DNA of 64,000 nucleotides, taken from assembly GCA_947449495.1 (NCBI GenBank), contig CANFSB010000004.1, forward strand, positions 1-64,000, written 5' to 3'. Position numbers and translations under genes: made by a program. The DNA is from Pseudomonadota bacterium (GTDB lineage Bacteria > Pseudomonadota > Gammaproteobacteria > Steroidobacterales > Steroidobacteraceae). Every line of letters begins with the position of its first letter. The stretch's first letter is position 1. The notes under the pieces are model-generated. The model did not search any database, was not told the origin of the DNA, and saw only the letters and a list, made by a program, of their open reading frames with translations. This document shows, in pieces, positions 41,836 through 42,380 of the stretch.

Positions 41836-41843
41836 ATTGGCAA

Positions 41844-41869
41844 CCCTCCCCGGAGAAATCCGGGGGGGG
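41844..41869 (+). other. Strong GAAA-tetraloop hairpin between ssrA and the LAGLIDADG ORF
   Basis: CCCTCCCCGGA-GAAA-TCCGGGGGGGG, 11 bp with one G-U; no U-tract follows. Confidence 0.6.
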
Positions 41870-41918
41870 GACTTGCTAACAAGCTAATGCTTACCTGTGC
41901 AGTCGTCAGGAGCACGGT

Positions 41919-42380
41919 ATGAACACACTCACCGCTGCAGTGGCCGCCTACATCGCTGGACTTGTCGATGGCGAGGGCACCGTCACGCTTAGCCGTTTGC
42001 ACAAGCAGGCTAATCGGCGACTGGTAGTGACCATAGCCAACACCGAGTTAGTGCTGTTGCAATTCGTCCTGACGCACGTTGGCGCCGGAAAAATCACGCG
42101 CAAACGGACCACTTCAGCGAAACATACGCCGTCTTATTGCTATGCCATTTCCAGCAGGCAAGCTTTGGCGCTACTCAAACAGCTGCTGCCCTATCTGCAA
42201 TCATACAAGCGCCAGCGCGCTGCCTTGGCGCTCGAGCACTATGAGGCGCTTACGCCTCGCAATGGCAAATACACAACACAGGGACTTGAGCGGCGCCACC
42301 GTTTCGAAGAAGCACTTCTTGCCATGACAGCTGCACGAACAGTCAGCGCTGGAACACATCAGGCCGGTGCAATTCCATAA
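41919..42380 (+). CDS. Single-motif LAGLIDADG homing endonuclease
   Basis: 153 aa, AAYIAGLVDGEGTVTLSR; LLKQLLPYLQSYKRQRAALALEHYEALTPRNGKYT; RBS AGGAG 7 nt before ATG; begins 84 nt after the tmRNA CCA end. Confidence 0.9.
   Translation: MNTLTAAVAAYIAGLVDGEGTVTLSRLHKQANRRLVVTIANTELVLLQFVLTHVGAGKITRKRTTSAKHTPSYCYAISSRQALALLKQLLPYLQSYKRQRAALALEHYEALTPRNGKYTTQGLERRHRFEEALLAMTAARTVSAGTHQAGAIP

What the first reader, a model, noticed from the sequence alone, without database searches (positions are those of the whole stretch)
41836..42380. Free-standing LAGLIDADG ORF next to, not inside, the ssrA intron
Seen: a 153-aa single-motif LAGLIDADG protein with a good RBS begins 84 nt after the ssrA CCA end, while the intron has no room for an ORF. 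Known: single-motif LAGLIDADG enzymes act as dimers and usually sit inside the intron they mobilise. Inference: this could be a collaborative-homing arrangement, where a neighbouring endonuclease cuts intronless ssrA and co-converts the intron plus itself, or an intermediate before invasion of the intron.
Basis: partly seen in the sequence, partly recalled or inferred. Interest (0 to 1): 0.85.

Follow-up and report, generated by a model that had tools for sequence, protein, structure and literature searches.

The report
Homing endonuclease paired with tmRNA intron
A small DNA-cutting gene sits directly beside, not inside, a self-splicing intron in the bacterial tmRNA gene; the same pairing recurs in dozens of related bacteria and looks like two selfish elements that spread together.

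Summary
[quoted passage not shown] A 153-aa single-motif LAGLIDADG ORF (41919-42380) starts 83 nt after the CCA. Its predicted fold is I-CreI/I-MsoI-like (pLDDT 93).

Relatives were found in 32 gammaproteobacterial genomes. All 32 lie next to ssrA; 30 have the intron, and the two without it carry dead endonuclease genes. Association: family p=4e-9, class p=3e-22. A sister genome (96% identical) lacks both intron and ORF. A genome only 72-79% identical elsewhere carries a 96.6% identical ssrA-intron-ORF module. Selection is purifying and many copies are decaying.

Phage relatives (30-40% identity) also sit at tmRNA genes: antisense inside T-loop introns, downstream, or within permuted tmRNA. 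This LAGLIDADG lineage therefore appears dedicated to tmRNA.

Best explanation: collaborative homing. The endonuclease cuts intronless ssrA at or near the T-arm, the intron masks the donor's site, and repair co-converts both. Cleavage is untested. The arrangement is known only from phages, with other enzyme families, in the literature I could search.

The parts
41186..41522 (+). ssrA (tmRNA) 5' exon, tag ANDDNYALAA
   Evidence: RF00023 match; 100% identical to the intronless ssrA of sister genome G021
41523..41818 (+). ORF-less group I intron, T-loop position 7, 296 nt
   Evidence: RF00028 28.7 bits; borders by alignment of relatives; absent from G021
41819..41835 (+). ssrA 3' exon (T-stem 3' strand, acceptor, CCA)
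   Evidence: sequence; identical in relatives
41844..41869 (+). hairpin after ssrA (terminator-like stem-loop without a T run), kept between ssrA and the endonuclease gene in relatives
   Evidence: sequence; same position in relatives; not called by the terminator scan
41908..41912 (+). AGGAG ribosome-binding site
   Evidence: sequence
41919..42380 (+). free-standing single-motif LAGLIDADG homing endonuclease, 153 aa; acidic residue E19 and invariant K97 align with the I-CreI catalytic acid and lysine
   Evidence: Pfam, PDB sequence match to I-MsoI, AlphaFold2 pLDDT 93 and Foldseek I-CvuI/I-CreI/I-MsoI
41880..42536 (+). block absent from sister genome G021: endonuclease element (to about 42349) plus a GNAT-gene fragment
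   Evidence: alignment window/G021
42351..42538 (.). 188-nt copy of the GNAT gene piece at 43366-43553 (93%), possibly donor flank carried in with the endonuclease gene
   Evidence: the repeat finder

Best explanation
This is a collaborative-homing pair on a bacterial chromosome. The LAGLIDADG protein, as a homodimer, recognises the conserved T-arm/acceptor end of an intronless ssrA and makes a double-strand break at or near the intron insertion site. The resident intron splits that site, so the host's own ssrA is not cut. Repair of the cut allele from an intron-bearing donor copies the intron, the 3' exon, the hairpin and the adjacent endonuclease gene together. After fixation the endonuclease gene decays while the splicing-neutral intron persists, until re-invasion. 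Shown: the conserved arrangement, the joint presence or absence, the inter-species transfer of the module, purifying selection, decay and fold. Inferred: cleavage, target position, protection by the intron and co-conversion as the mechanism.
For: Relatives in 9 of 201 family genomes, all within the 27 with the ssrA intron (Fisher 3.8e-9). In the class sample 16 of 21 intron-bearing versus 2 of 366 other genomes (p=3e-22). The two exceptions (G467, G398) sit beside intronless ssrA and are pseudogenes, and intron-bearing relatives of G467 carry the gene. Sister genome G021, 96% identical over about 15 kb, lacks both intron and ORF block. The G041 ssrA-intron-ORF module is 96.6% identical to the window while six other segments are 72-79%; ORF dS is 0.045. 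At all 11 ssrA exon sites separating G021 from G041 the window has the G021 state, the last 27 nt before the intron. dN/dS is about 0.14-0.34. Decay is seen in G151, G010, G127, G710, G421, G553 and others. The fold is that of dimeric single-motif homing enzymes. Phage relatives sit at tmRNA genes.
Against: No cleavage data. Some phage relatives look intact beside intronless tmRNA (L148, L158, L161, L162), so an intron is not always needed; their targets may be diverged or elsewhere. Over long times endonuclease and intron phylogenies do not match, so the two are not one inherited unit. The direction of the G000/G041 transfer, and gain versus loss in G021, cannot be fixed. Several genomes are metagenome-assembled.
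Confidence: 0.75

Rival explanations
1. The endonuclease is an ordinary intronless-homing gene whose target spans the ssrA 3' end; its own insertion after the CCA protects the host and the intron is a bystander that hitch-hikes.
For: Phage relatives lie directly after the CCA of intronless and permuted tmRNA genes.
Against: In bacteria 30 of 32 copies accompany an intron present in only about 5-13% of sampled genomes, and the two without intron are dead. The sequence after the CCA is not conserved between species, so a site spanning it could not be shared; the T-arm/acceptor is shared.
Confidence: 0.15
2. The gene descends from an intron-encoded endonuclease that moved out of the intron, and now persists as a remnant or with another role.
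For: Phage cousins lie antisense inside T-loop introns; 36 of 883 known tmRNA introns hold endonuclease genes (PMC11915505).
Against: Purifying selection and fixed position beside the intron; no in-intron copy in 45 bacterial introns; phage in-intron forms fall on a different branch.
Confidence: 0.05
3. The gene is cargo of a genomic island integrated at ssrA by a tyrosine recombinase.
For: tmRNA genes are frequent integration sites (PMC11915505); a second ssrA 3' end follows the gene in G431 and G579, and G398 has a long duplication.
Against: G021 shows a local insertion with colinear flanks and one ssrA 3' end; no integrase was recognised among the ORFs beside the gene in G431 or G579 (read by eye).
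Confidence: 0.04

Closest known systems
Collaborative homing of F-CphI and the psbA intron, cyanophage S-PM2 (PMC6083498, citing Zeng et al. 2009); [quoted passage not shown]
   Same: ORF-less group I intron in a conserved gene with a separate endonuclease gene next to it; presumed protection by the intron and joint transfer
   Different: Here LAGLIDADG instead of EndoVII-like or other enzymes, tmRNA gene instead of protein gene, cellular chromosomes across a class rather than phage; cleavage not shown
tmRNA T-loop group I introns (Williams 2002; PMC11915505)
   Same: Same gene and same insertion site (position 7)
   Different: Known endonuclease genes lie inside the intron (36 of 883); in that study flanking sequence was trimmed and downstream genes are not described
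I-CreI / I-MsoI / I-CvuI single-motif LAGLIDADG enzymes
   Same: Fold, motif, acidic residue and lysine; probably homodimer
   Different: Those are encoded inside rRNA introns; about 20% identity; target unknown here
Antisense LAGLIDADG genes inside phage tmRNA introns (L144, L149, L155, L167; this study)
   Same: Homologous enzyme at the same gene
   Different: Inside the intron and antisense, on a separate branch

Membership tests
Collaborative homing pair | ORF-less intron with a separate endonuclease gene adjacent | tested here: met
   Window and 29 further genomes
Collaborative homing pair | Intron and endonuclease present or absent together among close relatives and moved together | tested here: met
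   G021 lacks both; G041 module 96.6% versus 72-79% background
Collaborative homing pair | Endonuclease cuts the intronless allele at or near the intron insertion site | not testable with these tools
   Needs protein and DNA; only the exon tract boundary within 27 nt of the intron hints at it
Collaborative homing pair | Intron blocks cleavage of the donor's own gene | not testable with these tools
   Indirect: both bacterial copies next to intronless ssrA are dead
LAGLIDADG homing endonuclease, single-motif type | LAGLIDADG motif with catalytic acidic residue and LAGLIDADG fold | tested here: met
LAGLIDADG homing endonuclease, single-motif type | Homodimer and site-specific cleavage | not testable with these tools
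   No experiment; dimer inferred from fold relatives
tmRNA group I intron | Group I intron in T-loop, -1U and omega-G | tested here: met
Intron-encoded homing endonuclease | ORF inside the intron | tested here: not met
   ORF starts 83 nt after the ssrA CCA; 45 relatives' introns lack ORFs
ssrA-integrated genomic island | Integrase and flanking att repeats | tested here: not met
   Single ssrA 3' end in the window, colinear with G021

The most novel reading that the evidence does not exclude
A whole LAGLIDADG lineage is dedicated to tmRNA genes. It occupies every tmRNA gene form in bacteria and phages (downstream of intron-bearing, intronless and permuted genes, and antisense inside T-loop introns). 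In bacteria it behaves as a partner that reassorts among different introns occupying the same T-loop site, so the endonuclease is loyal to the gene and not to one intron. This would make it the first cellular collaborative-homing system, with the intermediate arrangements still visible.
Probability: 0.55. Interest if true: 0.87.

Novelty: new variant of a known kind. Interest (0 to 1): 0.78.

Why it matters
Collaborative homing was proposed from a few phage loci, and how it arises is explicitly an open question (PMC10448857). Here the same gene, tmRNA, shows the same endonuclease family downstream of the intron, without the intron, and inside it, in many lineages, with a natural empty allele and decaying copies. 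That makes the origin of mobile introns testable in cells. It may also help explain how ORF-less introns, about 96% of known tmRNA introns, can spread.

Tried and rejected
Mis-drawn gene or chance ORF: rejected by conservation, dN/dS and fold. Endonuclease inside the intron: rejected by boundaries. Genomic-island cargo: rejected for the window (G021 colinear, one ssrA 3' end). Strict co-inheritance of intron and endonuclease: not supported; Mantel rho 0.07 (p=0.19), and on the endonuclease tree the two intron clades are mixed (5 changes versus 6.5 shuffled; AU p=0.088, not decisive). Weak 28-43-bit hits of the intron model were not counted; the four tested (L039, L040, L128, L129) are group I introns without tmRNA. 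One weak protein hit (G242, 27% identity, L044) has no tmRNA nearby and was taken as another LAGLIDADG protein. No plasmid relatives. A phylum sample of 299 genomes found only the window's own copy. The genome-contig scan gave only one relative, the near-identical G041 copy. Literature searches for tmRNA or ssrA with homing endonucleases returned no report of a downstream gene, but subscription papers are not held. A search around G398 for more intronless cases found no other genome in its order.

Full report
What is there. The window carries ssrA from 41186 to 41835, interrupted in the T-loop by a 296-nt group I intron (41523-41818). The borders follow the usual rules (-1U, omega-G, restored 7-nt T-loop) and fall at the main known tmRNA intron site, position 7 (PMC11915505). 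Rfam scores the intron at only 28.7 bits, under its gathering score, but the relatives align over its whole length with conserved core and identical ends. After the CCA comes a strong hairpin, then AGGAG and an ATG at 41919 opening a 153-aa ORF with one LAGLIDADG motif. The closest solved enzymes by sequence are I-MsoI and I-CreI. A model from 44 relatives has mean pLDDT 93 and matches I-CvuI, I-CreI and I-MsoI, which act as homodimers inside rRNA introns (established knowledge). The acidic residue E19 and the invariant K97 line up with the I-CreI catalytic acid and lysine (by-eye reading of the alignment).

The pair is conserved. In 201 genomes of the same family, 9 have the ORF, all among the 27 with an ssrA intron (Fisher p=3.8e-9). 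In 387 genomes of the class, 18 have it: 16 of the 21 intron-bearing genomes and 2 of the remaining 366 (p=3e-22). Adding the order samples gives 32 genomes. In all 32 the gene lies next to ssrA, and where the ssrA end is in view it lies on the same strand directly after the CCA and a hairpin. Thirty have the intron. Homologs named by their sources are from Steroidobacteraceae, so the family is probably that one. In the introns measured the length is 250-348 nt and none holds an ORF.

Mobility. Genome G021 is 96% identical over 15 kb upstream but has an intact, intronless ssrA and no ORF. The window aligns to it up to the intron, over the 3' exon and hairpin (41819-41879), and again from 42537; the intron and the block 41880-42536 are the only large differences near ssrA. 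That block holds the endonuclease gene and a 188-nt copy of a GNAT gene piece that also lies 1 kb downstream. Conversely, genome G041, only 72-79% identical in six other segments, has a 96.6% identical ssrA-intron-ORF stretch ending at the ORF; the ORF dS is 0.045. At the 11 ssrA exon sites that distinguish G021 from G041 the window has the G021 state, the nearest 27 nt before the intron. The sequence exchanged with the G041 lineage may thus start close to the intron site and run downstream through the ORF, as a break at the T-loop would predict. Which lineage was donor, and whether G021 lost or never had the pair, cannot be decided.

Life cycle. dN/dS is 0.14-0.34 in measurable pairs, so the protein has been under selection. 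Many copies are broken: frameshifted (G151, G710), truncated (G010, G442, G588, G733), internally deleted (G579) or reduced to remnants (G127, G553, G421). This is the gain-fixation-decay cycle expected of homing genes. The two bacterial copies beside an intronless ssrA are dead: G467 has an in-frame stop, G398 has lost its catalytic motif. Relatives of G467 have intron and gene, so an intron loss after endonuclease death is the simplest reading. That fits a need for the intron as a shield, but two cases are few.

Loyal to the gene, not to one intron. The introns fall into two deep clades (about 45% different), yet both carry the same endonuclease family. On the endonuclease tree the two clades are mixed, even within one genus (G431 versus G579), and distances do not correlate. 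The AU test is not decisive (p=0.088).

Phages. A scan of viral contigs gave 56 relatives at 24-47% identity. Of the 40 loci given to Rfam, 18 have a tmRNA near the endonuclease gene and five more have only a group I intron there. Arrangements seen: antisense inside a T-loop intron (L144, L149, L151, L155, L167); directly after intronless tmRNA, same strand (L148, L158) or convergent (L161, L162); convergent after an intron-bearing tmRNA (L168, probably L160); and between the pieces of permuted tmRNA right after its CCA (L153, L159, L165). The bacterial downstream forms group together, apart from the phage forms. The common denominator is the T-arm/acceptor end of tmRNA. I infer that this is the target.

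Comparison with the known. Functionally this matches collaborative homing, described for F-CphI beside the psbA intron of cyanophage S-PM2 and for T7-like phages. It differs in enzyme family, target gene and host. Known endonuclease genes of tmRNA introns are inside the intron (36 of 883); the database authors trimmed flanking sequence, and I found no report of a downstream gene. Membership as a collaborative-homing pair rests on two features met and two untested (cleavage and protection), so I file it as a probable new variant.

Limits. Presence and absence rely on similarity searches. No biochemical step was observed.

Noticed in passing
viral loci L144-L168: Phage relatives of the endonuclease sit at phage tmRNA genes in several arrangements, including antisense inside the T-loop intron and inside permuted tmRNA genes.
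   Followed up: partly
L131 2172-2196 (G431) and L132 2355-2379 (G579); L158 about 3396-3420: A second copy of the ssrA 3' end (GGGTTCGATTCCCGCCGCCTCCACCA or part of it) lies right after the endonuclease gene; either an att remnant or an insertion scar.
   Followed up: partly
G398, L134 2415-10850: An 8.4-kb spaced direct duplication of ssrA 3' end plus endonuclease pseudogene, like an integrated island with unusually long repeats.
   Followed up: no
window 42351-42538 and 43366-43553: Duplicated GNAT-gene fragment flanking a FitA/PIN toxin-antitoxin pair (42643-43352), one copy directly after the endonuclease gene.
   Followed up: partly
window 41186-41835: ARAGORN does not call this intron-bearing tmRNA, so automated annotation may miss it and its neighbour.
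   Followed up: no
L039, L040, L128, L129: Group I introns elsewhere in related genomes (67-83 bits RF00028) whose host genes were not identified.
   Followed up: no
G041, L079: In G041 the endonuclease ORF runs in frame into the C-terminal end of a vapB-like antitoxin gene.
   Followed up: no
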